A stretch of 64,000 bases of DNA. Source: Siphonodentalium dalli (lineage: Eukaryota; Mollusca; Scaphopoda; Gadilida; Siphonodentaliidae). The position numbers and the translations under genes were made by a program. A model generated the notes under the pieces. The model was not told the origin of the DNA and searched no databases. It saw nothing but the letters and a program-made list of their open reading frames with translations. Shown here one piece after another: positions 10,266-61,190 of the stretch (position 1 is its first letter; every line of letters starts with the position of its first letter). Where the stretch lies: contig CP136069.1 in NCBI GenBank assembly GCA_032622095.1, positions 154,369,043 through 154,433,042 on the forward strand, written 5' to 3'.

Positions 10266-10588
10266 CAGTGTTAAATTTTTTCAATATTATGTACTAGTGG
10301 CACCCACTGCGCTATCCGCCGCTCAGTTGTGTAACTAGGGTCATATCGACGCTTTGTTTTGACTGTCACACAGCCAGTTAGGCGATATAATAATTGCGAT
10401 TATTATATTTTCATCAACTTTTTACCTCAAAATATAAATCATATCTCCACTCACAGAACACCAAACGTGTTATCCTGCTCTCATCATGTTATCCTACTCT
10501 CAGCACTGCGTCATGAAGTCAAATGTTGCGTCATTCGGTATCCTTGCGCGTATTATTAACAGAAATGGCTGGTGATGTTGTAGATTTA

Positions 10589-11128
10589 AAGGCACGGGCG
10601 GCGTTCGTTGCAGAAATAGTTATATTTGTTCAAATCGTCATCAACAGAAGGAACTCCAAAATATATACAGTTCCGCTCATATGCCAAACATAATCAGCGC
10701 GTAAATAATATATTGTCGCCAGGACGTACGGTGGTGTACGTAAACAATAGACTGCTCGTGTTACAGAAGTTTTGCTTCTGTTTACATAACATAACGCATT
10801 TCTATTGGTTACTCACACAAAAATGATATAAACGCTCTTTATTATTTCCACATAAGGAAAACAGTAACAAATAACGCTCTTTATGTTCACCATATCCGGA
10901 TCTAAACAAAAGCCAGGAAACGTAACTTTTTTGCTTTTGTTTACATAACAAAGTGGGCAAAACTGACAATAACATACTGTCTATGCCATATTTTTGATTG
11001 CCATATAAGAACAAAGTCTGTCGATATCTTACTATTCCTTCTGTTTATGGCGGAGTTTTTGACGGAGGTGAATATTTTAACAGCATACCCACCGCCAACA
11101 CCCCCCGTATCTTTAAGGACGTGTTAGG
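10589..11128. repeat. Dispersed repeat family A, most complete copy
   Basis: The copy starts near GGCACGGGCGGCGTTCGTTG and runs through CATATGCCAAACATAATCAG, TGCTTCTGTTTACATAAC, AACGCTCTTTAT, CATATCCGGATCTAAACAAA and ATGGCGGAGTTTTTGACGGA to about 11128. Other copies are 12374-14300 (interrupted), 23069-23212 and 27388-27656. It has no ORF with recognisable homology. It is useful as the uninterrupted reference for insertions in the other copies. Confidence 0.8.
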
Positions 11129-12373
11129 TCTAACCGTGCGTTTCATTGTGGTCTGGATCGTAACAACTGGTATAGAAAATATAATAAACACAACAGTCAA
11201 CTGTTCTGAGTAGCGTACGGATTTTTTCCTGTCGTGATAAACGTGAGCGCCTCGTAAAAGATAATCCCCCGCAGTTTCATCCGAGGAGAAAAACCGTACG
11301 CTACTCAGAACAGTTAACAGCGAGAGCGATAAGAGATTTTGACATTTTCTCCTGATCATTTTTCGGAATAAATGTTGGCAGAACATACACGTTATTGCAG
11401 TGGGCTGACGGTAACATTGTGTGATATTGACTTCTTGGAAGCCTATGTTCAATTTCGTCGCTTCGACTCAAAGCTGTCACTGTCACACCTTGTTATCGTC
11501 AATCCGCCACAATAACTTACAATAATCGAGTAAAGGTCTACTCTAGTTGAAACGTGTTACATAACAATATGATTCAGACGACACATATACGTGAATATTC
11601 TCGCTCGATGTCTGACAATCAAAACAAAACGCCGATATAATCATAATCAGGGAATAATAAGCAATTACTTCTACCCTCCTAATTTGGTAGTTGAAGGGAA
11701 GATAGCGTTGCGGATGTAAAAAGTACATACACCTCCAAGTTATCTTGTATGCAGGTGAAAGTTAATAATTAAATGCTCATAAACAGCCGCCGTACCTTTA
11801 CGTGTATTCTCAGATTAAACAGTATATATATGATCGATCACATCCGACGTACATTGTGCAATTATTCAGGATGTGCGTAATACGAAAATCAATTCGCTTT
11901 CAAGCAATCAGGATTTGATCAGACTTTAGATGGTTTCTGTGAGAATCGATTCCTGTGGGAAACTACATACCCCATGTCATATTTTCGATAAATGCAGATT
12001 GCCGAGAAAATTGATTTAAAGCGCCGTTTATATTAGCAATGTGAGACGCCCACATATATATACTATATAAGAGATACCCGAGGTGGGTATTCTGAAACAC
12101 CCTGGACGACGAGATGACGTCTGAGGCTTCTCCCAAGCCGAACATGCACGTGAGTAAAATTATAGTTTCAATGGTAGGGCGTGGCACGAAGGTAGAACTT
12201 CCATGATATATTGCCGATCATATGTCGGGGTATAGAGAATGCGATGTTTTGTATTGTTTGTTTGTTTGTTTGTTTTTTGTTTTTTGTTTGTTTTCTTTTT
12301 CTTTTTATTATATAAACTAGACATACCCGAAAACACTCATTTTGTAATAATACTAATTGTTGATATCATGTTA
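11129..12373. other. Gene-free stretch
   Basis: There is an imperfect inverted repeat at about 11195-11310: the GTCAACTGTTCTGAGTAGCG at 11196 is complementary to CGCTACTCAGAACAGTTAAC near 11300. A T-rich tract with repeated TTTGTTTG lies at about 12250-12300. No coding region is supported. Confidence 0.55.
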
Positions 12374-12667
12374 AAAGCACGGGCGGCGTTTGTTGCAGAA
12401 ATATTCATATTTGTTCAAATCGCCATCAACAGATGGAATATTAAAATATATATAGTTTTGTTCATATGCCAAACACAATCAGCGGGTAAATAGTATATTA
12501 TCGTCAAGACGTACGATGGTGTACGTAAACAAGAGCCTGCTCGTGTTACATATGTTTTGCTTCTGTTTACATAACACAACGCAATTCTATTGGTTAATCA
12601 CACACAAATGATATAAACGCTCTTTATTATTTCCATATCAGGAACAGTAACAAATAACGCTCTTTAT

Positions 12668-13054
12668 GAGGCCCCCACCCCCTACCCCCTGGAGTACGGA
12701 ATACCACATAACACAGAGGGTGGAATACGGAATACCAGTTAACAGCCAAATTTATTTTCCGGATAATTTTTCTATTGCCGTACGAACGCCGGGCATCCCG
12801 CAGTGTCCACGTCTAAAATGATATAAAATGACGATGATCGACGATTTGTATGTCAAACCGTGAATTTATTGTGACAAAAATCGCATTTTTAATATTATGA
12901 TCATTTTTTGGAAGGTCGGCGTACGAATACCGGTATTTTTTGGAATACCGAATACCTCCTAACAGAGGGGCCGGAATACGGCGTACCTCATACCAGGGCA
13001 TGGAATACGGCGTACGAAAGGGTGGGGGGGGGGGGGGGGGGGGGTGGGGGCCTC
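12668..13054. mobile_element. 387 bp TIR element (hAT-like MITE)
   Basis: The ends are perfect 15 bp inverted repeats, GAGGCCCCCACCCCC. CTTTAT lies on both sides (12662-12667 and 13055-13060). The related copy at about 10874 has this CTCTTTATGTT site uninterrupted, which confirms the insertion. A long G run (about 13022-13044) sits just inside the right end. It has no ORF of its own. Confidence 0.85.
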
Positions 13055-22238: not shown

Positions 22239-22257
22239 GTTTAGATGTACTGAGGCC

Positions 22258-22702
22258 GGGTGGGGGGGGGGGGGGGGTCGGAAAATTGTTTCAGGCACAT
22301 ATGCTGATTTTTTACTTTCGACCCTTGTTGGGACCCACCCACCCCCTTTTAACACTAAAACAGAGATTTGCGGGGGGGGGGGGGAAATTCACTGTAAAAA
22401 GCTGTATATGAATTTCTGTGCATAAAATTTGCCATGGATGTTACCATTGACATGTAAATAGGAACGAGTCATTTCCAAATTTGCAACAAAATACAACACG
22501 ATAACTGCCTGAAGTCAGTTTAGCAGTTAGAATTACATTATTTCTCTTATTCTAAGGTGTTTTAAGCCAAACTCATTGCAAAAACAGTAAAAAAACGTGC
22601 AGGAAATTGTTTTTTGAGTTGCGAAAAAATTTGCTTGTTGGTCCTATCGACCACCCATCCACCCGGCATACGTGCCCGGAAAAATACCCCCCCCCGGAGG
22701 CG
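22258..22702. mobile_element. hAT-like G-rich-ended element, copy
   Basis: A G run with GTCGGAAAA and CAGGCACATATG at left is inverted against CATACGTGCCCGGAAAAATA with a C run at right. It has no ORF. It lies entirely inside the long direct repeat and was duplicated with it. Confidence 0.6.
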
Positions 22703-23068
22703 ACTAATTTTTTCACCCTGATGAAAATCTCAGTTCCTCGCAGACATTCAATTCACTTCACTTGATGCTACTGATCTACATTCATGGTAAACCAGACATC
22801 TTTCTGAAATATAGGTACTGTCATGGACCATCATACAGGGCGACTTGGGACACATCTTCTCCCTAAAATATGTCCCATCTCCCTATTTTGTCCCATACCA
22901 GGAGAGGTGACCTCTCTCATTTACCAATAGCATCTTTAAAGAATATTTACTGATTATAGTCGTATTCTTACTCAATATATGGTTTTAAAAATGGGCTCTT
23001 GTATCGAATAATACGTATTTGATCATAGAAGAGATGTAATTCATGAGTCAGAACCATTAAGTCATATA

Positions 23069-23212
23069 TTAAAAGCACGGATGGCGTTCGTTGCAGAAAT
23101 GTGCGTATTTGTTCAAATCGCCATCAACAGAAGGAATATTAACATATATAAAGTTTTGTTCATATGCCAAACATAATCAGCGCGTAAATAGTCTATTGTT
23201 GTCAAGACTACG
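23069..23212. repeat. Dispersed repeat family A, fragment
   Basis: It matches the start of the 10589-11128 copy (GCACGG, TGGCGTTCGTTGCAGAAAT, CATATGCCAAACATAATCAG). It is cut at 23212 by the 5' end of the retroelement. The first codons of the long ORF beginning at 23091 therefore come from this repeat, not from the retroelement. Confidence 0.85.
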
Positions 23213-26071
23213 TATTGTTCTTGGAGTATCGTACAGATCTGCACAATTCTGCTCTCAAAATTATTGGGAACACCTGGAATCCTTAATATCAGACGCTCTC
23301 GACATTTCCGAATACGTTGTCATTACAGGAGATTTTAACTCCAATTTCATGGATAGTTCATCGAAGTTGAAAAATATAACGGATGGTTTCAGCATGAAAA
23401 ATTCAATAATGGTCCCCACGAGAGTGACCTCCACCTCAAGCACGTTACTTGACCCAATTATTACTTCAAACTCTCTCCGTGTAATATATGCCGATGTCCT
23501 AGATCTCGGAGTTTCAGACCACTTAGGTGTATATGCTACAATAACATTTGAAAACACGACCGCAGCGTCATTTCTAAGACAAGTGTGGAACTACAGAAAA
23601 GCTAACTTTTCCCATGCAAATAACCTACTTGCTAATGTCAACTGGGATGACCTCATAACACATGCATCGGATGTGAACACAGCTGCCAATAACATTCAAT
23701 TAGAATTTCTGTCCATAATGGCGAAAACAATTCCACAGTCGTACATTACAGTAAGAACTTCTGATAAAATCTGGTTCAACTCGGACATCCGTTTTGAGAT
23801 ACGAAAACGTGACAGAGTTAGGAAAAAAGCCATGAAAAATGAAAACCCTGAAATCTGGAGAAAATACAAAAATATAAGAAACAAAGTCAATAACATGAAG
23901 AAGCACGCAAAAATTAAATTTGAAGAAAACCTAGAAGAACGAATAAGAGAAGCGTCCAACCCGCGAGACTTTTGGCGAATAATGCATTACCTACTAAACA
24001 AGAAACGAACAAAAAATATCCCCCCACTATACAGCTCCTCCGGTACTATCTCTGCTAACAATAAGACATATGCAATAGATGATAATGAAAAAGCCAAAAT
24101 CTTAAACGACAGCTTCATTGCAAATTCTACAATTAATGGTGCTAATAATAACCTGCCTAATTTTCCGAAACGCACCGCAAACACCATGCCTGACTTGATC
24201 TTCACAGAAACCGAGGTTGAAACAGCCATCAAATCTTTTAAACTTAACAAAGCCCACGGGCACGATGGGATTAGCGTTAGAATGCCCCGCGAAACAGCAA
24301 AATCGATAGCTCACCACTGGTCCTTCTATTCAGGAAATCTATCAATACAGAGAAATTCCCAAACTCCAGGAAATCCGCAAACGTGATCCCGATTTTCAAA
24401 AAAGACGATCCAGCTGACGCCAAAAATTATCGACCAATATCCCTTTTACCATGTGTATCTAAAATTTTGGAGAAAGTTGTTCTGAAACAGATTAGTAAGT
24501 TTTTCATCGAAAATGAGCTCTTGTATTTTCATCAATCCGGTTTTCTCCCAGGTCACAGTAAAACATACCAACTATTAGACCTATACCACAACTTGTGCCA
24601 AACCCTCGATAAAGGACTATTTACATGTTCCATATTCTGTGATATATCCAAAGCTTTTGAAAGGGTTTGGCACAGGGGACTGATACATAAATTGAAAGCT
24701 TATGGATTAAAAGGAACGACTTTAAATTGGATAGAAGACTACCTAGATAACCGGACGCAAAGAGTCCTAGTCAATGACATATTTTCAAAATATGAGGTCA
24801 TCCAAGCAGGAGTGCCCCAGGGATCTATCCTGGGACCTTTCTTGTTCCTTGTCTATGTAAATGATCTAGCCGATGGTATTGAATCGGTAACGATAATGTA
24901 CGCTGATGACACTTGCCTCACGAATAGCCACTTTGATATTAATATACTTGAAGGTACTATGAACAGCGACTTAGACAAAATTACAGCGTGGTCCAAAAAC
25001 TGGCTGGTCAGCTTTAATCCAATTAAAACAGTTGGAATGTCCTTCTCATTGGTTGCTCCATCTACAGAGAATCCGAACCTCAAATTCGTGGGAAATTCAA
25101 TCGACTTTGTGGACAAGCATAAACATTTAGGTCTGGAACTCCAATCAAATCTCAAAAGGAACGCCCACATCGAAGGCTCTGTCAAAAAGATTGCATCGCG
25201 CCTATCTCAACTTCGTCGCATCAAATATCAACTAAACAGGAAAACCATCGAAATTATTTACAAAACATACATTTTACCACTATTTGATTATTCAGATGCC
25301 GTTTGGGACAATGCCTCTAACTATATGTTAGAAAAGCTTGACCGGCTTCATATCGATGCTGGCCGGATAGTCAGCGGTATCACCCGTTCTGCCTCGGGTG
25401 ATGCGGTATTACAGGAAGTTGGATGGCCTTCACTCAATAAAAGACGCCAAACACATAAATTGCAGGCACTCTATAAAATCGTCAACAATTTAGCACCAAC
25501 ATATCTATCCACTATACTTCCCCCCAGATCTCATGAAGTTGCAGACTATAATTGGAGACGCCCCAGTAAATTTTATTCATATTACTGCAATACTGAACAC
25601 TTCAAACAGTCATTTTTCCCAAAGATGGCCATGGAATGGAATAAACTTGCCAAATTAATCACTGACGTTGAACAATTTTCTACCTTCAAAACCAACTTGC
25701 AACATATAGATCCAACGCCCAGTCCCCCTCGACATTTCTACGTTGGACTCAGAAAATACAATATTTTTCACTGTCGCCTACGTAACTTGTGTAGTGAACT
25801 CCGATCTGATATGTTCAACAACTATATCGCTGACAGCCCCGCATGTTCGTGTGGAAACCGGTATGAAGACGCATATCATTATTTCTTCATGTGCCCATTG
25901 TACCAAAGAGAGCGCTCAGAATTATCTGAGAAACTAACCCGTGAAAATCTCATAATAAGCAACATTGCAGAACTCATGTGTGGAATACCTAATATCTCGT
26001 CCCAAAAAAATATGAGACTATTTGACATCACACAGCAATATATTGCCGCGACTAAACGTTTCGACCCCTAA
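23213..26071 (+). pseudogene. Endonuclease (C-terminal part) plus reverse transcriptase of the truncated non-LTR element
   Basis: The APE-type endonuclease remnant shows VVITGDFNSNF (about 23318-23350) and VSDHLGVYA (about 23512-23540). The RT follows: KAHGHDGISV (about 24250), NVIPIFKKDD then NYRPISLL (24383-24450), motif A FCDISKAFERVWHRGL (about 24637-24680), motif B GVPQGSILGPFLF (about 24808-24850) and motif C MYADDTCL (about 24896-24920). The C-terminal part carries a Cys/His cluster, CSCGNRYEDAYHYFFMC (about 25846-25896), typical of the tail of Jockey/CR1-group RTs, and ends at a stop at 26069-26071. One frameshift near 24310 separates two long frames that overlap by a few bases. Confidence 0.88.
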
Positions 26072-26566
26072 AAGATTTTATATTATATGTATGTATATGT
26101 GTGTCCACACGGATCCATATATGTGTGCATGTGTATATTTAGGTGTATGTACATACATAAGTATATCACTTCTGAATATACTTAAAGGTGCTTCCGAAAT
26201 TTCAATTTTTATGTGGCAGTTATCTCACAAACGGACCAACCTCCCCCACAAACATGCACGTTCTTATCAATTGTCGGTACTGTCTTCCAGAACGCTACAA
26301 TAATGAAAACCTAGTTCATGACTGTCTACTATTATTATTTTTTCACAATGTAGCCTCATTGTTTTAAACACAAATCTACACAACCTCTGGAAGGCAATAC
26401 AAATTATATATCTCTAAACTGATCATCATGTAAATACGTTTATATACCGTCATCTTGATCACATGTATGTAATATTATTGTATCGGGAGAGGGGCTTCGT
26501 AAGTTGTAAAAACTTGTGCCTCAATCCCTTTTGTATATTATACAAATAAAATATGTTTCAAGTCAA
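23213..26566 (+). mobile_element. 5'-truncated non-LTR retrotransposon between kilobase direct repeats
   Basis: The element is 3354 bp. It begins inside the endonuclease domain and ends 16 bp after an AATAAA (26545-26550) without a long poly(A). The 3' terminal bases are TTTCAAGTCAA. The flanks are the direct repeats 22239-23212 and 26567-27528, which behave as a target-site duplication of roughly 965 bp. The coding region is broken by a single frameshift near 24310, so the copy decayed little after insertion. Confidence 0.85.
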
Positions 26567-27528
26567 GTTTAGATGTACTGAGGCCGGGTGGGGGGGGGGG
26601 GGGGTCGGAAAATTGTTTCAGGCACATATGCTGATTTTTTACTTTCGACCCTTGTTGGGACCCACCCACCCCCTTTTAACACTAAAACAGAGATTTGCGG
26701 GGGGGATTCACTGTAAATAGCTGTATATGAATTTCTGTGCATAAAATTTGCCATGGATGTTAACATTGACATGTAAATAGGAACGAGTCATTTCCAAATT
26801 TGCAACAAAATACAACACGATAACTGCCTGAAGTCAGTTTAGCAGTTAGAATTACATTATTTATCTTATTTTAAGGTGTTTTAATCCAAACTCATTGCAA
26901 AAACAGTAAAAAAACGTGCAGGAAATTGTTTTGTGAGTTGCGAAAAAATTTGCTTGTTGGTCCTATCGACCACCCATCCACCCCGGCATACGTGCCCGGA
27001 AAAATACCCCCCCCCCGGAGGCGACCAATTTTTTCACCCTGATGAAAATCTCAGTTCCTCGCAGACATTCAATTCACTTGATGCTACTGATCTACATTCA
27101 TGGTAAACCAGACATCTTTCTGAAATATAGGTACTGTCATGGACCATCATACAGGGCGACTTGGGACACATCTTCTCCCTAAAATATGTCCCATCTCCCT
27201 ATTTTGTCCCATACCAGGAGAGGTGACCTCTCTCATTTACCAATAGCATCTTTAAAGAATATTTACTGATTATAGTCGTATTCTTACTCAATATATGGTT
27301 TTAAAAATGGACTCTTGTATCGAATAATACGTATTTGATCATAGAAGAGATGTAATTCATGAGTCAGAACCATTAAGTCATATATTAAAGGCACGGATGG
27401 CGTTCGTTGCAGAAATGTGCGTATTTGTTCAAATCGCCATCAACAGAAGGAATATTAACATATATAAAGTTTTGTTCATATGCCAAACATAATCAGCGCG
27501 TAAATAGTCTATTGTTGTCAAGACTACG
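26567..27528. repeat. Long direct repeat, right copy, flanking the 23213-26566 retroelement
   Basis: It matches 22239-23212 over its whole length. Visible differences include one fewer CACTT near 27075, a shorter G run near 26700, and single changes such as TTAACATTG for TTACCATTG. The small divergence dates the insertion as fairly recent but not new. Confidence 0.92.
26586..27020. mobile_element. hAT-like G-rich-ended element, duplicated copy
   Basis: This is the counterpart of 22258-22702 inside the right direct repeat, with the same terminal inverted G/C-run ends. Confidence 0.6.
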
Positions 27529-27656
27529 ATGGTGTACGCAAACAAGAGCCTGCTCGTGTTACATAAGTTTTGCTTCTGTTTACATAACACAGCGCAATTC
27601 TATTGGTTAATCACACACAAATGATATAAACACTCTTTATTTTTTCCATATCAGGA
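27388..27656. repeat. Dispersed repeat family A, copy
   Basis: It matches 10589-10869 through GCACGG, CAAGAGCCTGCTCGTGTTAC, TGCTTCTGTTTACATAAC and CTCTTTAT. It runs unbroken across the position where the left long direct repeat is cut by the retroelement. Confidence 0.85.
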
Positions 27657-28794
27657 AAACATGGCTGCCAGCGGCCATCTTGGATTTCAAAATTTGCAAC
27701 AAAATACAACACGATAACTGCCTGCAGTCAGTTTACCAGTTAGAATTACATTATTTCTCTCATTCAAAGTGGTTTTGAAGCCCAACTCATTGCCAAAACA
27801 CTAAAAAAACAAGCAGGAATTATTTTTTTTAGTTGCGGAAAAAATTGCTTGTTGGTGGCTTTAACCACCCACCCACCCCGGCATATGTGCCGGGGTGAGA
27901 ATAGGTTGTATATGTACATATATGTGGCAGTATCCGCGGGGCGAGAATAGGTTGTATATATGTACATATATATGTGGCAGTATCCGCGGGGCAGAAGCTA
28001 CACGCATTTCTATGTATAGGTGTACACACATGTACATGTCTGTCTATATTTGTACACGATGACACACCAACTTAATGTCAGCCGTATGTAAAGTTTGCTC
28101 TAACGTTGCACATCGATTCTACGAACACAAATGCCATGTTGCCCGTATAAAAACGGAAGAAAACGCTTACAAATCGCCGCATGAATCTCGCTGAAATTTT
28201 TTTCCGGCACATATGCCGGGGTGGGTGGGTGGTTAAAGCCACCAACAAGCAATTTTCAGCGAGATTCATGCGGCGATTTGTAAGCGTTTTCTTCCGTTTT
28301 TATACGGGCAACATGGCATTTGTGTTCGTAGAATCGATGTGCAACGTTAGAGCAAACTTTACATACGGCTGACATTAAGTTGGTGTGTCATCGTGTACAA
28401 ATATAGACAGACATGTACATGTGTGTACACCTATACATAGAAATGCGTGTAGCTTCTGCCCCGCGGATACTGCCACATATATATGTACATATATACAACC
28501 TATTCTCGCCCCGCGGATACTGCCACATATATGTACATATACAACCTATTCTCGCCCGGCACATATGCCGGGGTGGGTGGGTGGTTAAAGCCACCAACAA
28601 GCAATTTTTTCCGCAACTAAAAAAAATAATTCCTGCTTGTTTTTTTAGTGTTTTGGCAATGAGTTGGGCTTCAAAACCACTTTGAATGAGAGAAATAATG
28701 TAATTCTAACTGGTAAACTGACTGCAGGCAGTTATCGTGTTGTATTTTGTTGCAAATTTTGAAATCCAAGATGGCCGCTGGCAGCCATGTTTTT
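27657..28794. repeat. Near-perfect palindrome, about 540 bp arms
   Basis: The left arm 27657-28196 is the reverse complement of 28254-28794 with very few differences, around a 57 bp spacer. The spacer itself repeats a block of the right arm (CCGGCACATATGCCGGGGTG, then the GTGGGTGG run). The arms contain (ATGTAC)-rich stretches and the tail of the G-rich-ended hAT-like family. Confidence 0.92.
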
Positions 28795-42227: not shown

Positions 42228-42395
42228 GCGTGCTGACAGCAACTTACGGTGAGGTTTGCGAAAATGACACAGCGTGTGCGGCAGACAAAGGATTATCATG
42301 TTACAAACCATATCAGGAATGCTCAAAGGGGTACTGTTTGTGCGCAAATGGTCCGCTCAGAAACGACTGGGATAGTAATGACGGAGTATGCAAAA
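42228..42395 (+). CDS. Host gene, EB-like cysteine-rich exon (exon b)
   Basis: The exon lies between the acceptor CTTTTTCAACAG and the donor GTAAGT (42396). It is 168 bp, phase 1 at both ends. The coding reads VLTATYGEVCENDTACAADK and continues with the Cys pattern C-x5-C-x7-C-x6-C-x4-C-x-C-x15-C, like EB modules of secreted invertebrate proteins (YCLCANG resembles the typical C-x-C-x-x-G end). The mature protein probably starts near TYGEVC, after the leader encoded at 34810-34849. The 1-1 phase means the exon can be duplicated or skipped without breaking the frame. The binding partner and function of the product are unknown. Confidence 0.82.
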
Positions 42396-42939
42396 GTAAG
42401 TTGGGGTTTTATTGTTGTTCAACTTCAACAATTCATTTGGTAGATCGTACACAACAAGAATCTTGGTAGATACTTTATCAAATGAGCTGCGGACGGCGAT
42501 ACAAGATTATATATTGTGACGTAAGTTGTGTTCTGTATTTATTCTACACCCTTGTGTCAGATAAGTTTAATCCATGACTGTGACTACCATTGGTACTATA
42601 ACTACCTTTATTGTGATTTAAGTCTAATGCAAAACCGGTAATTATGTGTGCACTACACGAAGGGGGTAGTTAACATTACGTACGTCATCACTCTTGGCAA
42701 CAACACCAACTCGAAGTAGTTCCGGTTGTATTCAACTTGTGGTATACACTATGTTTCCAATGACTGGGATTCGATTGAATGCAATGTACATGGTGCCTCG
42801 CGTCAACGGGTGAGGAATAATATTTATTATACTGATAATTCAGAAATGTTCAAGTCAGTTATGTGAATTATATGTGTGCAATTATAGCATAAATGCGCAC
42901 TTATTTATAGTGGTTAACGGGTAAAGACAAATCTGTATC
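42396..42939. other. Intron stretch with dispersed repeat
   Basis: The segment 42665-42840 is related to 10085-10265. The rest shows no coding signal up to the microsatellite. Confidence 0.6.
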
Positions 42940-43734
42940 ATCATCATCATCACCATAATCATTACCAGAATTATCGTCATCATTGTCAACATCAACATTA
43001 GTTTCAGCATCATCGTCATTCTCATCACCATAAACATCGTCATCACTATCAACATCATAATAATCATTGTCATTATCATCATCGCCGCCGTCGTGGTGAT
43101 CAGCATCATTATCATCATCATCATCTTCATCATCATCATCATCATCATCATAATCATCAGCAGCATCACCATTATCACGATCATCATCTTTATCAGTTTC
43201 AACATCATCGTTGTCATCATCAAACATCTTAATTATCACCATTCTCATCATCTTCGTCACTATCATTATCGTCATCACAATCATTATCAACATTATCGTC
43301 ATTATCATCACCATAATCATCGTTTTCAACATCATCATACATAATCATCATCACCATCATTTATCGTCATTATCATCATCATCATCATCGCCGTCGTCGT
43401 CAGTTTCAACATAGTCGTTTTCATCGTCAAATATCATAATAATCATCATTGTCATCATCATCAATATCATCATCACCATCGTCATTATCATTACCATAAT
43501 CATCGCCATCATTTTCTACATCATCATAATAATCATCATCACCATTATCATAACCATCATCATCGTCATTACCATCACCACCAACATATCTACCAGCATC
43601 ATCATCATAATCATCATCATCTTCATCATCATCATCACCATAATCATCGTCATAATTTTCAGCATCACTATCATAATCAATTTCATCGTCATTATCATTA
43701 GCGTAATCACCGTTATCATTATCATCAACACCAT

Positions 43735-43766
<32 letters not shown>

Positions 43767-45117
43767 TCATCATCACCACCACCACCACCACCACCACCAC
43801 CACCACCACCACCACTACTACCATCATCATCATCATCATCATCATAACATCGTCGTTGTCATCGTCATTATCATCACCATAATCATCGTCATCATTTTCA
43901 ACATCATCATAATCATCATCATCACCATCAGCATCATCGTCTTTATTATCATAATCCTCGTCATCATTTTCAACATCATCATAATCACATCACCACCATC
44001 ATCATCATCATCATTATCATCATCATCATCACCACCACCACCACCACCACCACCACAACCACCACCACCACCACCATCACCATCATAACATCGTCGTTGT
44101 CATCGTCAAATATCATAATCATCATCATTGTCAACATCATCGCCATCACCGTCATAATGAACATCATCGTCATCATCATCACCATTATGATCGTCATCAT
44201 TGTTAACATCATCATCAGCATCGTCATCATCACCACTACCATTATCCTCATAATTAACATCATCACCATCATCATCACCATCACTATCATCATCATCATC
44301 ATCAGTGTCAGCATCATCGTTGTTATCATCGTCAAATATTATAATCATCATCGTCGTCACTATTATCATCATATCCATCGTCACCAACATCATCGTCATT
44401 ATCATCCCCATAAACATCGTCATCACTTTCAACATCATAATAACCATTGTCATAATCATCATCATCGCCGTCGTGGTGATCATCATCATCATCGTCATCG
44501 TCACCACCACCACCTCTACCACCATTATCATCATCATCAACATCATCATCATCATCGTTATCATTATCGCCATCATCATCGTCATCAATTTCAACGTCAT
44601 CGTCACCGTCAAACATCATAATCTGCATCATTATCATCAAGATCATCGTCACTATCATCACGATAAGCATCGCCATCATTTTCAACATCATCATAATCAT
44701 CATCGCCATCGTCGTCGTGATCATCACCACCATCATCATCATCACAGTCATCAACATCATCGTCACTACCATCGCCATCAACATCATCATCAGTAGCATC
44801 ATTATCATCATCATCACAGTCATCAACATCATCATCACAGTCATCAACACCATCGTCACTATCATCACCATAAGCATCGTCATCATTTTCATCACTATCA
44901 TCACCATCGCCGTCGTCGTGTGGTCATCATCATCATCAACACCAACACCAACACCACTACCATCAGCATCGTCATCATCATCATCATCAACACCAACACC
45001 ACCACTACCATCACCATCATCATCATCATCAACAACATCATCATCGTCATCATCATTATCATCACCATCGTCATCTTCATCAGCACCACCATCATCATCA
45101 CGCTGCACTGAGTCTGG
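42940..45117. repeat. ATC/TCA microsatellite, left copy
   Basis: About 2.2 kb of interrupted ATC, ACC and ATA trinucleotides. Stops are rare in several frames, producing long artificial ORFs rich in Ile, His or Ser on + and Met, Asp or Val on -. The part 43490-45117 (1628 bp) recurs at 51168-52801 (1634 bp), differing visibly only in repeat counts. This left copy ends CTGAGTCTGG, exactly where the retroelement 45118-51167 starts. Confidence 0.95.
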
Positions 45118-45598
45118 CCTGAATTAGGTCCCCTTTATGTTAAGTCGTAAACAATGTGTCTCTTCGAATTATCGCATATATGTCGGAATAAATAGATTCT
45201 CTCTCGATTTTGATGGTATGATGTGTTTGCGGAAGTTATTCCGATTCCAATGATGTTACCAATTCGTTTGATCGTCAACCGAATGTTTCAACATGACCGA
45301 ATAAACTCTCGTATGTATACTCCATTCGTCCGAATTTCCGTTATTGTTTTGTAAACGACGCCATGTTTGACGTGTCTTGTGTACCTTGATGAACTGTACT
45401 CACAATATACAAGTGTATACTGGAGTCTTCGCCGTGTGAAAATGTCACGCTTCACTGCTACTACTATAAACACTAAGTTGTAAATGCCGTGCGGGAAATA
45501 TCATTACTCACTGATACTCATGTACGGGTGGACAGTTAGCGAATTCATCTGGTGATTGGCAATTATACCACTTACCTGTTCCAAAAGAAGATATAAAC

Positions 45599-47155
45599 AT
45601 GGGAGTAACTGATCATGACATCAGCGACAACGGTAACGACATTCGCACATTAATTAAATGCTTATCAGCATGGTATGACAGTATCGAATCGCAACAGTAT
45701 ACTCGAAAGAAAGAAGATATGATACAAATAACCGAAAATTTAAACCACGTCCTAAAATTTATAAACTCTACCACGCAGGAGATGTTCGTAGCGGCTATCG
45801 TTGAATTTGTTGCAAACCAAGAAAAACTTCTGGACACACTCAGGGACAATATATTCTCACATGTGAAGGAACTAGAATCTTTTCCGTTTGATAAGTCGTC
45901 ATGTATGAAACAAAGAGTTATCAGAAGTCAAACAGGTGATCATGTGGTGGACAAAAACAATAAGCACAAACGAATGGCATGTGATGTATATAGACTTATG
46001 AAATTCATGGTTGATGGTCAATCGGACTGCATTGGTGACATTATTAGTAAAGGTGGGCGACTCAAAAGTGTTTGTCGACCATCCATATCAGGAATGATCA
46101 ATGATGAAGAAGATGTCGGCATCAACATTAAATGTGCAATCGTGGAAATTCAAAAGGATATATCGTGCATGAAAACTGACAATGAAAACTTTCACCACAC
46201 CTTTAATGACCGTATACCCAAATTCGACTCATCAATCGCCAGCTTAGATGCCAGACTCGAAAAAATTGAAGAAAAACTTAAAATCGTAAACAACATTGAA
46301 CAGATGCAATCGGATGTAAAACAAATAAACACAAAAATCAAAGAAATTGACGAAAGGATACAAAGCGACACACTAACAATTGAGAGAATCCAAGACGACA
46401 AATATTCGGGTGCTAGAAAACTAAAAAGTGAAATTGATGGAATCAAAGGTGACATCGGAAAAATAGTGAACGGGCTAGAAGAATACAATGGGAAACAAAA
46501 AAGACTGGAAAATCAATTCGCAACACTCAGAGACATTGTTAATAAAAAACATGTGCAACCTACCCATTCTTGTGATAAGTTCGTAAACGAAACAATCAAA
46601 CAAAATGTTGAAGTCATGAAAAATGAATTCAGGAACTTCACAACATCAGTTACAAACAATTTACAATTATTTGCTGATTCCGTAAATCAATCAATGGGTG
46701 AAATTTGCAAGACACAGCGTGAATTGGTCGAAACCATAAATAATATTATGCATCAGTCATATGAGGAGGAAGTTTACATGGACGAATCATATACCTCACA
46801 CCCAAATGATGTCAGCGTAGAGTCAGACATTCCGCATACAAATCAGCAGACGAAAAGAACTCCCGACAGACCAGTTCAACCGAAATCAAATGACGATGAC
46901 TACTTTTTTCAACTACACGACAGACCGATTAAAACATCACAAGTGTTCTTAGGTGCATTCGACGATAGTGTGACAATACATGACATTAAGAAATATCTGA
47001 ATAAGTATGAAATCCGGTTTACAGTTATTCGTATGCTCAGAGGAAATACAGCCAGATTGAACATATGCGACAGGGACCTTGACGATGTATTATCTGACAA
47101 CTTCTGGCCGAAAGGCGCTGTATGCAGATTGTGGGTTCATAAGAGCGACATTTAA
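45599..47155 (+). CDS. ORF1 protein: coiled coil plus RRM-like C-terminal domain
   Basis: The protein is 518 residues. Residues about 180-395 are rich in heptad-like Ile/Leu/Lys/Glu patterns (for example SLDARLEKIEEKLKIVNNIE), consistent with a coiled coil that trimerises or multimerises. Residues about 455-515 (SQVFLGAFDDSVTIHDIKKY to WPKGAVCRLWV) resemble the RRM-like or C-terminal domain of ORF1 proteins in L2/CR1-like elements, expected to bind the element RNA as a chaperone. There is no CCHC knuckle. The start ATG at 45599 follows AAGATATAAAC. It is transcribed with ORF2, 44 bp downstream in another frame, so ORF2 needs reinitiation or another bypass. Assignment is by architecture and position. 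Confidence 0.75.
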   Translation: MGVTDHDISDNGNDIRTLIKCLSAWYDSIESQQYTRKKEDMIQITENLNHVLKFINSTTQEMFVAAIVEFVANQEKLLDTLRDNIFSHVKELESFPFDKSSCMKQRVIRSQTGDHVVDKNNKHKRMACDVYRLMKFMVDGQSDCIGDIISKGGRLKSVCRPSISGMINDEEDVGINIKCAIVEIQKDISCMKTDNENFHHTFNDRIPKFDSSIASLDARLEKIEEKLKIVNNIEQMQSDVKQINTKIKEIDERIQSDTLTIERIQDDKYSGARKLKSEIDGIKGDIGKIVNGLEEYNGKQKRLENQFATLRDIVNKKHVQPTHSCDKFVNETIKQNVEVMKNEFRNFTTSVTNNLQLFADSVNQSMGEICKTQRELVETINNIMHQSYEEEVYMDESYTSHPNDVSVESDIPHTNQQTKRTPDRPVQPKSNDDDYFFQLHDRPIKTSQVFLGAFDDSVTIHDIKKYLNKYEIRFTVIRMLRGNTARLNICDRDLDDVLSDNFWPKGAVCRLWVHKSDI

Positions 47156-47199
47156 CCCCAATATACATCTATATTCAGTACTAAAATAGTACCGTTGAT

Positions 47200-50100
47200 A
47201 TGGGCATTCATTACTGCAATGCTCTACTTCTTTTAGTTGTGTGTTTGTTGAGCAATTGTGTATTTTCAGGTCACAAAGCGGATTACAGAATGGATAGTTC
47301 CACTCTTAATCTGTTGACTTGGAACGCTACTGGTATTATGTCATCAGGTTCATATCTCAGTAAGATGCTCGGCACGGGCTTGTATGACATAATTGGTGTT
47401 AGCGAACATTGGTTGTCTGCACACAATGTTGACTTTATCGAATCACTTGACAAATCTTATGAATACCACGCGGCATGTGATTATCGTCAGAGAACACCAA
47501 AACTGCCTAATAAAAGAGGGAGACCATCGGGTGGAGTAGCTCTTTTGTGGAACAAAAGGATCTCCCACTGTGTGTGCCCCTTGCCTATCAACAGTGATCG
47601 TATAATAGGCATTCAGATACATTTATACCAAAATACCTTTATTTATATATTTCAAGTATATCTTCCATCGACGAATTACACACCAGAATTCTATGGAGAA
47701 TGTATTCAAATGTTATACGATGTATGTAATATTTATAAAGCACATGGCAATATAATAGTAATGGGCGACTTTAATGCTCGATTAAATGTCAGTGCTGACC
47801 GCAATATGGCGTTCACAAAATTTGTCAAGCAATTAAACCTATTGTCTACAAATGTTCAAATGTGCGGAAATACCCCGCCCGTAACTTGTGTTCCATTTGG
47901 AACTATTAATCATATGATACAAGGTTCAATCATAGATCACATTCTTGTACCGGAGACACTAAAAACATGTGTCAAAACTGTGAATGTTCTCGATGATGAT
48001 TCTATTGATGTATCAAATCACAAACCGATTTCCGTGGGTATTAACGTTCCTGTGCACGCCAAAGCTAAATCGCTAAACAGTCATCAACCCGTATCAATGA
48101 TAGATTGGAAGCGTGTATCACGTCAGACAAACTTAATTGAAATATATCACAATTCTTTAGATGCAGAATTAAGGTCGATCGCTATATCCTCTAGAAAACT
48201 AAATTCTTCAGAACTATACGATACTATTATGCATGCTATATCCACTGCAACGGATAAAGCGCTACCAAAAAAGAAATTTAAAAAAAATCTGAAGCCCTTT
48301 TGGAACGAAAAACTGAAACAATTGCATGCAAATATGGGAATCTTGCGAAATAACTGGATATATAAAGGGCGCCCAAGAGCAGATTCTAAATCAGATGCCT
48401 ATAATTTATATAAATTAGCCAAACGCGAATTCCGTAGAGAATATAGGAAAGCAGCAGAAAAACACATGACAGATTTAAATGATGAGATTGATGAACGGGC
48501 GCAAGTTGACAGGGACTATTTATTTCGTATTTTACGTAACAAACGCCGGCGTACACATTTGGATCGAAATCCGATCTACTGTCATGAAGGAAAAACACTA
48601 CGCACAGAAGAGGAAGTTTCAGAAGGTTGGGCAACTTATTTCGAAAAGCTATACTCGCCCCTGTACCACTATGAGTTCAATTCTGAACATTTTGATAAAA
48701 TCACTTCATTTGTATCGCGCGAGACTTCTGAACAGTCATGTAGACAAACGAGCGAAATTGACCGTCGCATTCTGTTCCCTGTAACCGGAAAGGAACTTGT
48801 ACCAATTTATCGTTCTCTTAGTCGAAACAAAGCGGCCGGGTGGGATAATATTACAAACGAACATTTAATTCATGGAAGCCCTCTACTAACGAAAACTATC
48901 GCTGAACTACTCACGTCAATCTTTATGACACAAAATGTTCCCAATCAAATGAAACGCGGAATAATCGTAACACTGTACAAAGGAGGATCAAAGCCCAGAA
49001 CAGAATTTGACAGCTATCGAGCAATTACTCTAATGCCTGTATTGTATAAATTATTTGAGAAAGTTATGCAATCTCGACTGGAATCATATGCACCGAACAT
49101 TCTTTCAGTACACCCGTTACAACATGGTTTCCAAAAAAGTGTAAGCGCAACAATGACATCATACCTTTTGAGGGAATGCATTTCTTACACTTCCGATTGC
49201 AATCAGAAATTATACTGCTTCTTTCTAGACGTTTGGAAAGCATTTGACACTGTCTGGATTGATGGTCTATTATACAAACTACATAAACGTGGAATGCAAG
49301 GACATACATTTAAACTGATAAACCAACTACTCAAAACTGTTCAATGTTGTATCCGGTATGATGAAACATATTCGCGTTGGTTCGATGTACAACAGGGCGC
49401 CAGACAGGGAAGCATTCTCTCGCCTCTGTACTACATGATATACGTAGACGAATTGATAAAATTGTTATCAGAGTCACCATATGGTCTTACTATACTCGGC
49501 GTCAACTGTACTTGTCCTACACACGCAGATGACATGGTATTGCTCTCATTGAGTAGTACGGGGTTGTCGGAATTATGTAATATTTGTGAAAAATACAGTA
49601 ACAAATGGCGGTACAGATATAACTCCAATAAATGTTCGGTTCTGGTTTTAAACGAATCCAAAAATGAATTTTCTAATCGAGCAAAAAATTGGACTTTGTG
49701 TGCCAATCGGGTGGAAGAATGCACAGAAACTACTCATCTTGGCATACCCATCGACAAATATGATTTCAATACTGCTTTCGTTGAACGCATTTGTGACAAA
49801 CTAAGAAGTGCACTCATGATGCTAGCAAACGCAGGAGTTTATCCCGGTGGAATAACGCCACAGAGTTGCACGATGCTATATTCATCAGTAGTCTTATCTA
49901 AAGGTCTTTATGGTTCTGAATTACTATGGGATCTCAATAGAAATTGTGTTGATCGACTTGAGAAAACTCATCGATTCTGCATAAAATATTACCAGGGTTT
50001 ACATAGACGAACATCAACAAATATAGCATGCGGTTTGGTCGGTATGTCGCCAATAAATGCAATAATTGAAAAACGTAAAATGTCATTTTTTGGTTCCTTG

Positions 50101-50802
50101 TGCAACTTAAAATCCAACAAAACCGGTAAACAATTATTTTTCACGAGATTACATCAATATCTGACGGGCCTCGTTAAATTTTCAGGGAATTTCATGGCCG
50201 ATATCATTTTTATCTTTGACAAATATAAGTTGACAGGGGAACTGGAAGCGTTTATTCGTCATAGATCCTTTTTAAATCCGACAACATGGAAGCGAAAAGT
50301 CAGACAACGTTGGTCGGAAATAAACGATGCAGAATGGACACAAAACATATTAAGCGATAATAGACTTATTCGGTTCCATGACATACATTCCAGTCGTCAT
50401 ATGTCCCAATTATGGCAAAATTGTCGAAAATTCCCCAAAAACAAAGAGTCATATTTAATTGTTGCGCGACTGTTGTCTATATTACAAACCGAAGAAGCAA
50501 ATTGCTCACTCTGTCGATTAAAATACACAGATATAGTGTCCCATGCATTAGTGGAATGCTCCTCGTTACATCGTGATAGGGATCTTATCGAATATGAACT
50601 ACTAAATGAATTTCACGTGGACGTTTATCTAAAATTTGACTCACTCGATACTGAATCTAAAACACGCATATTTCTATCTAGATGTAATGATCTCGTACAT
50701 GAATCCGCAGAAGTTGAAATTTATCTAATCGACTTTTTTGTGAGGAAATGTGCTTATCTGTGGAAATTATATGTTGACCGAACAGCAGCTGAGAATGTTT
50801 AA
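47200..50802 (+). CDS. ORF2 protein: APE endonuclease and reverse transcriptase
   Basis: The protein is 1200 residues with no interruption. The APE-type endonuclease (about residues 35-280) shows LTWNATGI, DIIGVSEHWL, GGVALLWNK, VMGDFNARLN (Asp190, Asn192) and SNHKP (His274). The RT shows AAGWDNITNEHL, YRAITLMPVLYKLFEKVM, motif A FFLDVWKAFDTVW (Asp677), motif B GARQGSILSPLYY and motif C THADDMVLL (Asp777-778). A C-terminal CCHC-like cluster, CSLCRLKYTDIVSHALVEC (Cys1102, Cys1105, His1115, Cys1120), is typical of this group. It would nick target DNA and copy element RNA by target-primed reverse transcription. The first 30 residues (LLLLVVCLLSNCVFSG) look like a signal peptide. A second Met at residue 31 (47290) gives a start without it. 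Confidence 0.92.
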   Translation: MGIHYCNALLLLVVCLLSNCVFSGHKADYRMDSSTLNLLTWNATGIMSSGSYLSKMLGTGLYDIIGVSEHWLSAHNVDFIESLDKSYEYHAACDYRQRTPKLPNKRGRPSGGVALLWNKRISHCVCPLPINSDRIIGIQIHLYQNTFIYIFQVYLPSTNYTPEFYGECIQMLYDVCNIYKAHGNIIVMGDFNARLNVSADRNMAFTKFVKQLNLLSTNVQMCGNTPPVTCVPFGTINHMIQGSIIDHILVPETLKTCVKTVNVLDDDSIDVSNHKPISVGINVPVHAKAKSLNSHQPVSMIDWKRVSRQTNLIEIYHNSLDAELRSIAISSRKLNSSELYDTIMHAISTATDKALPKKKFKKNLKPFWNEKLKQLHANMGILRNNWIYKGRPRADSKSDAYNLYKLAKREFRREYRKAAEKHMTDLNDEIDERAQVDRDYLFRILRNKRRRTHLDRNPIYCHEGKTLRTEEEVSEGWATYFEKLYSPLYHYEFNSEHFDKITSFVSRETSEQSCRQTSEIDRRILFPVTGKELVPIYRSLSRNKAAGWDNITNEHLIHGSPLLTKTIAELLTSIFMTQNVPNQMKRGIIVTLYKGGSKPRTEFDSYRAITLMPVLYKLFEKVMQSRLESYAPNILSVHPLQHGFQKSVSATMTSYLLRECISYTSDCNQKLYCFFLDVWKAFDTVWIDGLLYKLHKRGMQGHTFKLINQLLKTVQCCIRYDETYSRWFDVQQGARQGSILSPLYYMIYVDELIKLLSESPYGLTILGVNCTCPTHADDMVLLSLSSTGLSELCNICEKYSNKWRYRYNSNKCSVLVLNESKNEFSNRAKNWTLCANRVEECTETTHLGIPIDKYDFNTAFVERICDKLRSALMMLANAGVYPGGITPQSCTMLYSSVVLSKGLYGSELLWDLNRNCVDRLEKTHRFCIKYYQGLHRRTSTNIACGLVGMSPINAIIEKRKMSFFGSLCNLKSNKTGKQLFFTRLHQYLTGLVKFSGNFMADIIFIFDKYKLTGELEAFIRHRSFLNPTTWKRKVRQRWSEINDAEWTQNILSDNRLIRFHDIHSSRHMSQLWQNCRKFPKNKESYLIVARLLSILQTEEANCSLCRLKYTDIVSHALVECSSLHRDRDLIEYELLNEFHVDVYLKFDSLDTESKTRIFLSRCNDLVHESAEVEIYLIDFFVRKCAYLWKLYVDRTAAENV

Positions 50803-51167
50803 GTGTAAGTGTATACGCGTCACCAGTATAAAACTTTCGCAAATATACATGGCATATACAATATGAGCAGCGCTGACATGAGAGGAATATATCGTAATAT
50901 CAGCCACAACAACAACAACAACAAAAATTAAATAATGTCAGCAGCAAAGGTCAATTGAATTTCATGCTACCTATGCCTTTATCGATATCTTGCATATTTA
51001 TGTTACTATAATGATTGTATGCTGAATGTTTATGGATACTTGTCATGTTGTATAATTATGTAAAATATGATAAAAATTCAATGTGTTGTGTGTAAATGTT
51101 GAGACGACAGTCTCTATTATTGTTATATATTTTGATATCTTCGGAAACGGAGGAAATAAAGATATAT

Positions 51168-51413
51168 ATTACCATAATCATCGCCATCATTTTCTACATC
51201 ATCATAATAATCATCATCACCATTATCATAACCATCATCATCGTCATTACCATCACCACCAACATATCTACCAGCATCATCATCATAATCATCATCATCT
51301 TCATCATCATCATCACCATAATCATCGTCATAATTTTCAGCATCACTATCATAATCAATTTCATCGTCATTATCATTAGCGTAATCACCGTTATCATTAT
51401 CATCAACACCATC

Positions 51414-51447
<34 letters not shown>

Positions 51448-52801
51448 TCATCACCACCACCACCACCACCACCACCACCACCACCACCACCACCACCACT
51501 ACTACCATCATCATCATCATCATCATCATAACATCGTCGTTGTCATCGTCATTATCATCACCATAATCATCGTCATCATTTTCAACATCATCATAATCAT
51601 CATCATCACCATCAGCATCATCGTCTTTATTATCATAATCCTCGTCATCATTTTCAACATCATCATAATCACATCACCACCATCATCATCATCATCATTA
51701 TCATCATCATCATCACCACCACCACCACCACCACCACCACAACCACCACCACCACCACCATCACCATCATAACATCGTCGTTGTCATCGTCAAATATCAT
51801 AATCATCATCATTGTCAACATCATCGCCATCACCGTCATAATGAACATCATCGTCATCATCATCACCATTATGATCGTCATCATTGTTAACATCATCATC
51901 AGCATCGTCATCATCACCACTACCATTATCCTCATAATTAACATCATCACCATCATCATCACCATCACTATCATCATCATCATCATCAGTGTCAGCATCA
52001 TCGTTGTTATCATCGTCAAATATTATAATCATCATCGTCGTCACTATTATCATCATATCCATCGTCACCAACATCATCGTCATTATCATCCCCATAAACA
52101 TCGTCATCACTTTCAACATCATAATAACCATTGTCATAATCATCATCATCGCCGTCGTGGTGATCATCATCATCATCGTCATCGTCACCACCACCACCTC
52201 TACCACCATTATCATCATCATCAACATCATCATCATCATCGTTATCATTATCGCCATCATCATCGTCATCAATTTCAACGTCATCGTCACCGTCAAACAT
52301 CATAATCTGCATCATTATCATCAAGATCATCGTCACTATCATCACGATAAGCATCGCCATCATTTTCAACATCATCATAATCATCATCGCCATCGTCGTC
52401 GTGATCATCACCACCATCATCATCATCACAGTCATCAACATCATCGTCACTACCATCGCCATCAACATCATCATCAGTAGCATCATTATCATCATCATCA
52501 CAGTCATCAACATCATCATCACAGTCATCAACACCATCGTCACTATCATCACCATAAGCATCGTCATCATTTTCATCACTATCATCACCATCGCCGTCGT
52601 CGTGTGGTCATCATCATCATCAACACCAACACCAACACCACTACCATCAGCATCGTCATCATCATCATCATCAACACCAACACCACCACTACCATCACCA
52701 TCATCATCATCATCAACAACATCATCATCGTCATCATCATTATCATCACCATCGTCATCTTCATCAGCACCACCATCATCATCACGCTGCACTGAGTCTG
52801 G
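51168..52801. repeat. ATC/TCA microsatellite, right copy
   Basis: A 1634 bp copy of 43490-45117 following the 3' end of the intact retroelement. Interruption patterns and even rare landmarks (ATATCTACCAGC, TAATCTGCATCA, GTCGTGTGGTCATC) are shared. The six-base length difference lies in the ACC/ATC runs. It ends CTGAGTCTGG, then continues into AATATGTGGGGGGATCAC, the presumed original right flank. Confidence 0.95.
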
Positions 52802-53376
52802 AATATGTGGGGGGATCACTATTACCACAAGCAAGCATTACATCAGTCGCATCCAATCACAAATTAGTATCAACAAAGCGATGTAGCCATCCAGGCGAGT
52901 GTTGGAATCTCTATACAGTCGCAGATTTCCACATAACTAAAACTAGCGCCAGTTTGAAGCATCGGATAATAATCATAGAGGCGATATCTTTCATTGGTAA
53001 AGCTATATATATGTGATGTGGTGTCATAATGCATGGGTCGCATGAGAAGTTATTTATATCGACACAGTTCTATTTGGTAATAGGAGACACGGGCATTTTC
53101 TCTAGACCAACTATTGCCTTGCTATTCGAGTCGGGTTTACCCAGAGTTGCATCAAAATCGTCATCATTGTGTATATCCAGACTCGAACATACATGTAATT
53201 GTTTTTTTACTCTCATAGTTTATGCATTTTATATTATATGTTATATATTTATTTTTTTTATTATAAAATCTTCATAGTTTTTGGGGAAATCAATATATAA
53301 TATTTTACTGAGAAGGATAGCGTACAAATAACTGGACGTGTTAAGCTATCAAGATACCAACTCGATTCAATTTCAG
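52802..53376. other. Intron stretch, nothing recognised
   Basis: AT-rich intron DNA ending in an acceptor (TCAATTTCAG) at 53376. No repeat or coding signal is recognised. Confidence 0.5.
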
Positions 53377-53571
53377 ACTACATAGCGTATGATGCAGCTT
53401 GCTCAGCTAACGCACAGTGCAACCAGAACTCGGGACAGGAATGTGCTAGCTTCCTCTGTGCCTGTGCCGCTGAGACTTGGAACAGCACAGCCATGGTCTG
53501 CAAAGGAACATCAAGGATCGCAGCAGCAACAACACCCCCTGTGTGCACGGACGTCAATTATAAATGCGTGG
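53377..53571 (+). CDS. Host gene, cysteine-rich exon (exon c)
   Basis: The exon lies between TTCAATTTCAG and the donor GTGAGT at 53572. It is 195 bp, phase 1 at both ends. The leftover A of exon b plus AC gives Asn, then YIAYDAACSANAQCNQNSGQ. The Cys spacing C-x5-C-x7-C-x4-C-x-C-x11-C matches the EB-like pattern of exon b, followed by a Thr/Pro linker and two more Cys (PPVCTDVNYKC). WNST offers an N-glycosylation site. It repeats the module of exon b and implies a secreted multi-module protein. Confidence 0.82.
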
Positions 53572-61186: not shown

Positions 61187-61190
61187 CGGA

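What the first reader, a model, noticed from the sequence alone, without database searches (positions are those of the whole stretch)
43490..52801. Intact non-LTR retrotransposon bounded by a 1.63 kb direct repeat acting as a target-site duplication
The element 45118-51167 begins immediately after CTGAGTCTGG (end of the left repeat, 45117) and ends immediately before ATTACCATAATC (start of the right repeat, 51168). The repeats (1628 and 1634 bp) are almost identical. The left copy is continuous with more microsatellite on its left, and the right copy with AATATGTGG on its right, so removing one copy plus the element restores a plausible single target. Target-primed reverse transcription normally gives target duplications of up to tens of bases. 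A kilobase duplication implies widely spaced nicks, extensive strand displacement in a repetitive target, or another integration route.
Basis: partly seen in the sequence, partly recalled or inferred. Interest (0 to 1): 0.88.

Follow-up and report, generated by a model that had tools for sequence, protein, structure and literature searches.

The report
Jumping elements that duplicate kilobase targets
Two unrelated copy-and-paste jumping elements in this stretch of animal-like DNA are each bracketed by a duplicated block of about 1 to 1.6 kilobases of the DNA they landed in, far more than is usual, which suggests that the last step of their insertion was loosely controlled.

Summary
A non-LTR retrotransposon (E1, 45118-51167; ORF1 plus an APE-endonuclease/reverse-transcriptase ORF2, both open) lies between 43490-45117 and 51168-52801. 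These flanks differ by one substitution and one 6-bp indel. The left copy runs on into more array and the right copy into other DNA, as in a target-site duplication.

E2 (23213-26566), from a different clade, is 5'-truncated. It lies between 22239-23212 and 26567-27528 (974/962 bp; 9 substitutions, 5 gap events). Two paralogous repeats run uninterrupted across its 5' junction and so show the empty state there. E2 is not in a microsatellite, so array recombination cannot explain both.

[quoted passage not shown] Kilobase duplications are documented: human L1 in repair-deficient cells (18 of 47 long ones above 1 kb) and 1 of 25 zebrafish L2 insertions in chicken cells (1228 bp). So this is a new variant, not a new kind. 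Two cases in 64 kb suggest a host-wide tendency, but other copies could not be counted: the genome search did not complete (14 tries).

The parts
42937..45117 (.). Degenerate ATC array, the target of E1; 42937-43489 is the part not duplicated
   Evidence: Tandem Repeats Finder 42937-45100; sequence
43490..45117 (+). E1 target duplication, left copy, 1628 bp
45118..51167 (+). E1, apparently full-length non-LTR retrotransposon
   Evidence: The 5' end has no independent check
45599..47155 (+). E1 ORF1, 518 aa, open; Pfam matches only below cut-off (coiled-coil-like)
   Evidence: no homologue found
47200..50802 (+). E1 ORF2, 1200 aa, APE-type endonuclease and reverse transcriptase, open
51155..51160 (+). 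AATAAA, 7 bp before the E1 3' junction; no poly(A)
51168..52801 (+). E1 target duplication, right copy, 1634 bp
22239..23212 (+). E2 target duplication, left copy, 974 bp
23213..26566 (+). E2, 5'-truncated non-LTR retrotransposon of another clade; coding frame split over two overlapping ORFs (23091-24386 and 24383-26071, the first beginning by chance inside the left copy)
26545..26550 (+). AATAAA, 16 bp before the E2 3' junction
26567..27528 (+). E2 target duplication, right copy, 962 bp
27382..27661 (+). Interspersed repeat in the target of E2, continuous across the end of the right copy; its left-copy counterpart is cut off by E2 at 23212
10586..10885 (+). Paralogue of that repeat, uninterrupted where E2 begins (empty state of the E2 5' junction)
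12368..12668 (+). Second such paralogue, uninterrupted

Best explanation
Both blocks are true target-site duplications made by the insertion itself. (1) The element's endonuclease nicks the bottom strand (E1 between 43489 and 43490, E2 between 22238 and 22239), and reverse transcription starts there from the 3' end of the element RNA, just downstream of its AATAAA. (2) No second nick is used close by. (3) The cDNA, apparently complete in E1 and incomplete in E2, is joined to a top-strand 3' end 1628 bp (E1) or about 970 bp (E2) downstream. That end came either from a distant nick reached by strand displacement or from a replication-associated or broken end, possibly on the sister chromatid. 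(4) Fill-in leaves one copy of the interval on each side. Shown by the sequence: junctions, copies, polarity, the empty state of the E2 5' junction in two paralogues, conserved EN and RT motifs in E1. Inferred: the nicks, their order, and where the distant 3' end came from.
For: Exact abutment of repeats and elements at two independent loci. Left copies continue into the DNA to the left and right copies into the DNA to the right at both loci. Two paralogues run uninterrupted over the E2 5' junction. AATAAA lies 7 and 16 bp before the two 3' junctions; only 1.7% of window positions have one starting 6-25 bp upstream. E2 is 5'-truncated within its endonuclease, a usual product of target-primed reverse transcription. 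Unrelated targets: 5.9% against 19.6% G. In print: 18 of 47 long duplications over 1 kb in NER-deficient human cells (PMC5223499); 1228 bp in 1 of 25 ZfL2-2 insertions in wild-type DT40 cells (PMC2666801).
Against: No reads, no unoccupied allele, no other copies of either family were available (genome search did not complete). No paralogue covers E2's 3' junction or either junction of E1. E1's 5' end has no independent check. The old element near 38.3-41.5 kb shows no long flanking repeat. A weak blastx extension of P0018 runs about 45 residues left of the E2 5' junction. Two loci may be two rare accidents: in NER-proficient HeLa cells duplications over 100 bp do not exceed 10% of events (PMC5223499).
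Confidence: 0.8

Rival explanations
1. Ordinary insertion first; later an unequal exchange or repair event between homologues or sister chromatids duplicated the neighbouring block to the other side of the element.
For: E1 lies in a long repetitive array, where unequal exchange is expected. An exchange between an occupied and an empty chromosome, broken exactly at one element end, would give the same product (inference).
Against: The break would have to fall exactly on an element end at both loci, although E2 is not in an array. Repair-mediated proximal duplications in the human survey PMC2671141 reach only 619 bp (passages).
Confidence: 0.1
2. Assembly artefact, for example a chimera of haplotypes with an element at two neighbouring sites.
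For: E1's copies are almost identical and lie in a microsatellite. The sequence source and read type are unknown.
Against: Each locus shows an element 5' junction and an element 3' junction about 1-1.6 kb apart in target coordinates; false joins at the flanks alone cannot create these, so two insertions of the same element close together would be needed, at both loci. E2's copies differ by 9 substitutions and 5 gap events, although in a very heterozygous animal this much could also be allelic.
Confidence: 0.06
3. A tandem duplication of the block existed beforehand and the element inserted exactly at its internal junction.
For: Gives the same arrangement.
Against: Needs insertion at one exact base out of about 1600 and about 970 at two loci. 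No tandem copy of either block without an element is in the window (the array region).
Confidence: 0.02
4. The repeats are terminal repeats that belong to the elements and travel with them.
For: Direct repeats of 1-1.6 kb around a retroelement resemble LTRs at first sight.
Against: EN and RT are of non-LTR type. E1's repeat is part of a longer target array. E2's repeat continues into an interspersed repeat that also occurs without E2.
Confidence: 0.01

Closest known systems
Human L1 insertions in nucleotide-excision-repair-deficient cells (XPA-, XPC-, XPD-; PMC5223499, abstract and passages read)
   Same: LINE insertion flanked by duplications of hundreds of bases to kilobases: 47 of 58 inserts over 100 bp, 18 of those over 1 kb. 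A distant second nick is proposed there.
   Different: Engineered L1 in mutant human cell lines; here resident insertions of two other LINE clades in a genome of unknown repair status. The partly rescued XPD+ cells still had 3 of 9 over 100 bp.
ZfL2-2 insertions in chicken DT40 cells (PMC2666801, passages and Discussion read)
   Same: One duplication of 1228 bp in wild-type cells.
   Different: 1 of 25; the other 24 alterations were 20 bp or less. Cell culture.
L1-mediated tandem duplications in tumours (PMC7058536, passages read)
   Same: Same topology; the model there is cDNA invading a 3' overhang on the sister chromatid downstream of the first nick.
   Different: The example is 22.6 Mb and somatic; here 1-1.6 kb in an assembled genome.
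Rotifer rDNA-specific R9 elements with an exceptionally long target duplication (only the title seen, in the reference list of PMC2861651)
   Same: Long duplication by a resident invertebrate non-LTR element.
   Different: Site-specific; the length, 126 bp, is recalled and comes from no call.

Membership tests
APE-type non-LTR retrotransposon (LINE), E1 | APE-like endonuclease and reverse transcriptase in one ORF | tested here: met
   PF03372 44.3 bits (cut-off 24.5) and PF00078 100.9 bits (29.6); matches LINE-1 ORF2p and R2 chains of the PDB
APE-type non-LTR retrotransposon (LINE), E1 | Conserved catalytic motifs of endonuclease and reverse transcriptase | tested here: met
   8 of 8 motifs looked for are present and fall in conserved columns of E1 plus nine relatives; activity not tested. 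The catalytic roles are recalled
APE-type non-LTR retrotransposon (LINE), E1 | No element-borne long terminal repeats | tested here: met
   The flanking repeat belongs to the target array, which runs on to the left
APE-type non-LTR retrotransposon (LINE), E1 | Short, variable target-site duplication (usually up to tens of bases) | tested here: not met
   1628/1634 bp. The defining point is variability; lengths above 1 kb are in print for LINEs
APE-type non-LTR retrotransposon (LINE), E2 | Reverse transcriptase of non-LTR type, 5' truncation, 3' end with polyadenylation signal | tested here: met
   Homologues with PF00078, truncation inside the endonuclease, AATAAA 16 bp from the end
Named LINE clade (CR1, L2, Jockey and so on) | Grouping with named reference elements in a tree | not tested
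   The tree holds no named clade references; it shows only that E1 and E2 fall in different groups
LINE insertion with long duplication owing to loss of NER function | Host deficient in XPA, XPC or XPD | not testable with these tools
   Own genome search unanswered (14 calls)
LTR retrotransposon | Terminal repeats that travel with the element, LTR-type RT, RNase H and integrase | tested here: not met
   Pfam shows EN and non-LTR RT only; repeats are target DNA

The most novel reading that the evidence does not exclude
In this animal kilobase target duplication is a frequent or default outcome of LINE insertion whatever the LINE clade, because the host does not place the second nick near the first (for instance through altered recruitment of nucleotide-excision-repair nucleases) or because insertion is completed on replicating sister chromatids. 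LINEs there would act as engines of kilobase tandem duplication, and recombination between the long copies could excise them precisely, which is not known of ordinary LINEs (recalled).
Probability: 0.33. Interest if true: 0.82.

Novelty: new variant of a known kind. Interest (0 to 1): 0.58.

Why it matters
How the second strand is cut and joined is the least understood step of LINE insertion. The kilobase duplications that I found in print come from cultured or tumour cells. Two resident insertions of different clades in 64 kb with this product point to a genome in which it may be natural, and make the question countable: tabulate duplication length at all young LINE copies of this species. 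If long duplications are common, LINEs are also a source of tandem duplications, and their copies might be removed without a scar.

Tried and rejected
Genome-wide count of other copies: the genome search 'own' did not complete. E1 relatives in viral contigs: none confirmed (protein; alignment A2). E2 relatives in viral contigs: none confirmed. E2 relatives in genome contigs: six loci, five of them from assemblies named as Bathymodiolus symbionts. None of the six has a long direct repeat on both sides of the match; L004 has a tandem array beside it. The contigs are 4-18 kb and the element ends are not defined, so this says little either way. Other copies of E1 in the window: none by blastn. Rfam at gathering thresholds: no match. 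ORF1 homologues: none. Long repeat around the old element with hits at 38.3-41.5 kb: none, only a 22-bp chance match between its flanks. Ideas rejected: terminal repeats of the element; insertion at a ready-made tandem junction; unequal exchange within the array as a cause common to both loci. The careful tree did not finish; the quick tree is reported. PMC13174521 (passages) had nothing to the point.

Full report
OBSERVATION. The direct repeat is real. The left copy, 43490-45117 (1628 bp), and the right copy, 51168-52801 (1634 bp), differ by one substitution and one 6-bp indel in a CAC run. The array is made of degenerate ATC units, so I checked that the match is not mere periodicity. The next best blastn pairing of the two flanks is 73.7% identical. 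In an ungapped scan of offsets the in-register match reaches 1.0 over 200 bp, shifts of 3 bases 0.82-0.84, and the best distant offset 0.805. Both copies share 16 non-array bases at their right end. The array continues to the left of the left copy (42937-43489), and non-array DNA follows the right copy.

THE ELEMENT E1. 45118-51167 holds a 518-aa ORF and a 1200-aa ORF, both open. ORF2 has an APE-type endonuclease and a reverse transcriptase above Pfam cut-offs and matches LINE-1 ORF2p and R2 chains in the PDB. Eight of eight short motifs that I looked for are present, and they fall in conserved columns of an alignment of E1 with nine relatives. The 3' end lies 7 bp after AATAAA, with no poly(A). 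The nine best relatives are 25-36% identical. ORF1 found no relatives. E1's 5' end is defined only by the repeat.

A SECOND CASE, E2. A comparison of the window with itself, with 42901-52802 masked and simple sequence filtered, showed one other long direct repeat of high identity: 22239-23212 against 26567-27528, 97.4%. Between its copies lies a non-LTR reverse transcriptase, 23213-26566. Base-level boundaries are: 9 substitutions and 5 gap events in 974/962 bp. E2 is 5'-truncated: homology to the endonuclease of P0018 is clear from GVSYRS onward, within about ten bases of the left junction. A weak extension of that alignment runs about 45 residues further left, into sequence that is also present in the right copy; I take it as chance. 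The coding frame is split over two overlapping ORFs in different frames (blastx frames). AATAAA lies 16 bp before the 3' junction. The last 145 or so bases of the duplicated block belong to an interspersed repeat. Two other copies of that repeat, at 10586 and 12368, run on without interruption where E2 begins and match the continuation of the right copy to 27661 and 27657. They therefore show the empty state of that junction. I have no such paralogue for E2's 3' junction nor for E1.

WHY THE DUPLICATIONS BELONG TO THE INSERTION. (1) The repeats abut the element ends at both loci. (2) The 3' ends are recognised independently: 1.7% of window positions have an AATAAA starting 6-25 bp upstream, and both 3' junctions do. 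(3) The polarity is that of a target duplication at both loci. (4) The ages agree loosely: E1, open, 0.06% substitutions between copies; E2, frame-shifted, 0.94%. (5) Apart from these two pairs, searches show no direct repeat of at least 500 bp and 95% identity; the next longest is 637 bp at 86.7%. Simple sequence outside the array was filtered in that search. (6) The targets differ: one is a G-poor array (5.9% G), the other ordinary sequence (19.6% G). Array recombination might explain E1 alone, but not E2.

DIFFERENT CLADES. E1 and E2 are 23% identical over 430 residues. In a quick maximum-likelihood tree of 41 rows, E1 groups with P0003-P0011 and E2 with P0026-P0040 and P0078, on opposite sides of branches with support 99. 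The careful search did not finish, nine rows are long, and no named reference clade is included, so I give no clade names. Among the 120 listed relatives of E2 (of 4541 that scored), a few carry source names: Pinctada imbricata and Candidatus Thiodiazotropha assemblies. Five of six genome-contig loci come from Bathymodiolus symbiont assemblies. The bacterial records are presumably carried-over host DNA; that Thiodiazotropha live in lucinid clams is recalled. This suggests, weakly, a mollusc-like host for the window.

WHAT COUNTS AGAINST A GENERAL RULE. With E1 itself, tblastn finds four non-LTR pieces in the window. Two (E1, E2) have definable ends, and both have long duplications. The old piece with hits at 38.3-41.5 kb has no detectable long flanking repeat, and none is seen around the piece with hits at 0.7-2.0 kb; the ends of both are undefined. 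Two loci in one window can be an accident. The own genome could not be searched.

MECHANISM. The product needs a bottom-strand nick (E1 43489/43490, E2 22238/22239) that primes the cDNA, and a top-strand 3' end about 1.63 and 0.97 kb downstream that is joined to the other end of the cDNA. Servant et al. (PMC5223499; abstract and passages read) found duplications over 100 bp in 4 of 7, 21 of 23 and 22 of 28 L1 inserts in XPA-, XPC- and XPD-deficient cells, 18 of those 47 over 1 kb; their complemented XPD+ cells had 3 of 9 over 100 bp, and in HeLa such events did not exceed 10%. They propose a distant second nick, reached by strand displacement or supplied by replication or repair. PMC5717806 (one passage) gives duplications up to 29,902 bp and 3450 bp in CSA-deficient and complemented cells, with medians of 12 and 13 bp. 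Suzuki et al. (PMC2666801; passages and Discussion) found 1228 bp in 1 of 25 ZfL2-2 insertions in wild-type DT40 cells. Kojima (PMC2912911, passages) cites 'extremely long' duplications among 5'-truncated L1 insertions in HeLa. Rodriguez-Martin et al. (PMC7058536, passages) explain an L1-bridged tandem duplication by cDNA invading a 3' overhang on the sister chromatid downstream of the first nick. At kilobase scale this gives exactly the present arrangement. The sequence cannot separate a displaced strand from a sister chromatid.

NOVELTY. The kind of product is known, so I call this a new variant: resident, in two clades, side by side, in a genome not known to be a repair mutant. The listings of my ten paper searches showed no title or shown abstract opening on kilobase duplications as a property of resident invertebrate LINEs; the library lacks most subscription papers, so that is not proof of absence.

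CONSEQUENCE. If frequent, such insertions duplicate a kilobase or more of target each time, and the long near-identical flanks could recombine and remove the element cleanly. PMC5223499 draws the parallel to solo LTRs. For the present genome this is inference.

Noticed in passing
22239-27528: Second non-LTR element (E2) flanked by a direct repeat of about 970 bp, not in the finding given; it became central to the verdict.
   Followed up: yes
27656-28793: Near-perfect palindrome of 1138 bp (96.4% self-complementary), right beside the E2 right copy; pieces of it also match the E2 target block.
   Followed up: no
29516-34536: Long inverted repeats: 29516-30379 against 33679-34536 (96.9%) and 30380-30769 against 33260-33640 (89.8%), as in a foldback or long-TIR element.
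   Followed up: no
54486-57374: Inverted repeat arms of about 440 bp, 94.8% identical, 2 kb apart; an open frame of 200 aa lies between them at 55522-56124.
   Followed up: no
37205-37459 and 40614-40864: Related palindromic insertions (up to 98.8% identical), also present near 53.8 kb; the copy at 40614-40864 interrupts the reverse-transcriptase region of the old non-LTR element (hits 38.3-41.5 kb).
   Followed up: partly
42231-42395 and 53379-53571: Cysteine-rich open stretches, by eye exon-like with splice-like edges, on either side of the array and E1; E1 may sit in an intron of a host gene. No family search was made.
   Followed up: partly
3615-3803 / 59071-59259 and 5370-5553 / 61007-61190: Two pairs of 93-95% matches in the same order and nearly the same spacing, 55 kb apart: probably two copies of one longer repeat. 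Reverse-transcriptase-like ORFs at 5537-7185 (by eye, not searched) lie next to one of them.
   Followed up: no
L001-L005: Contigs in assemblies named as Bathymodiolus symbionts encode LINE reverse transcriptases of animal type, presumably host DNA in bacterial assemblies.
   Followed up: no
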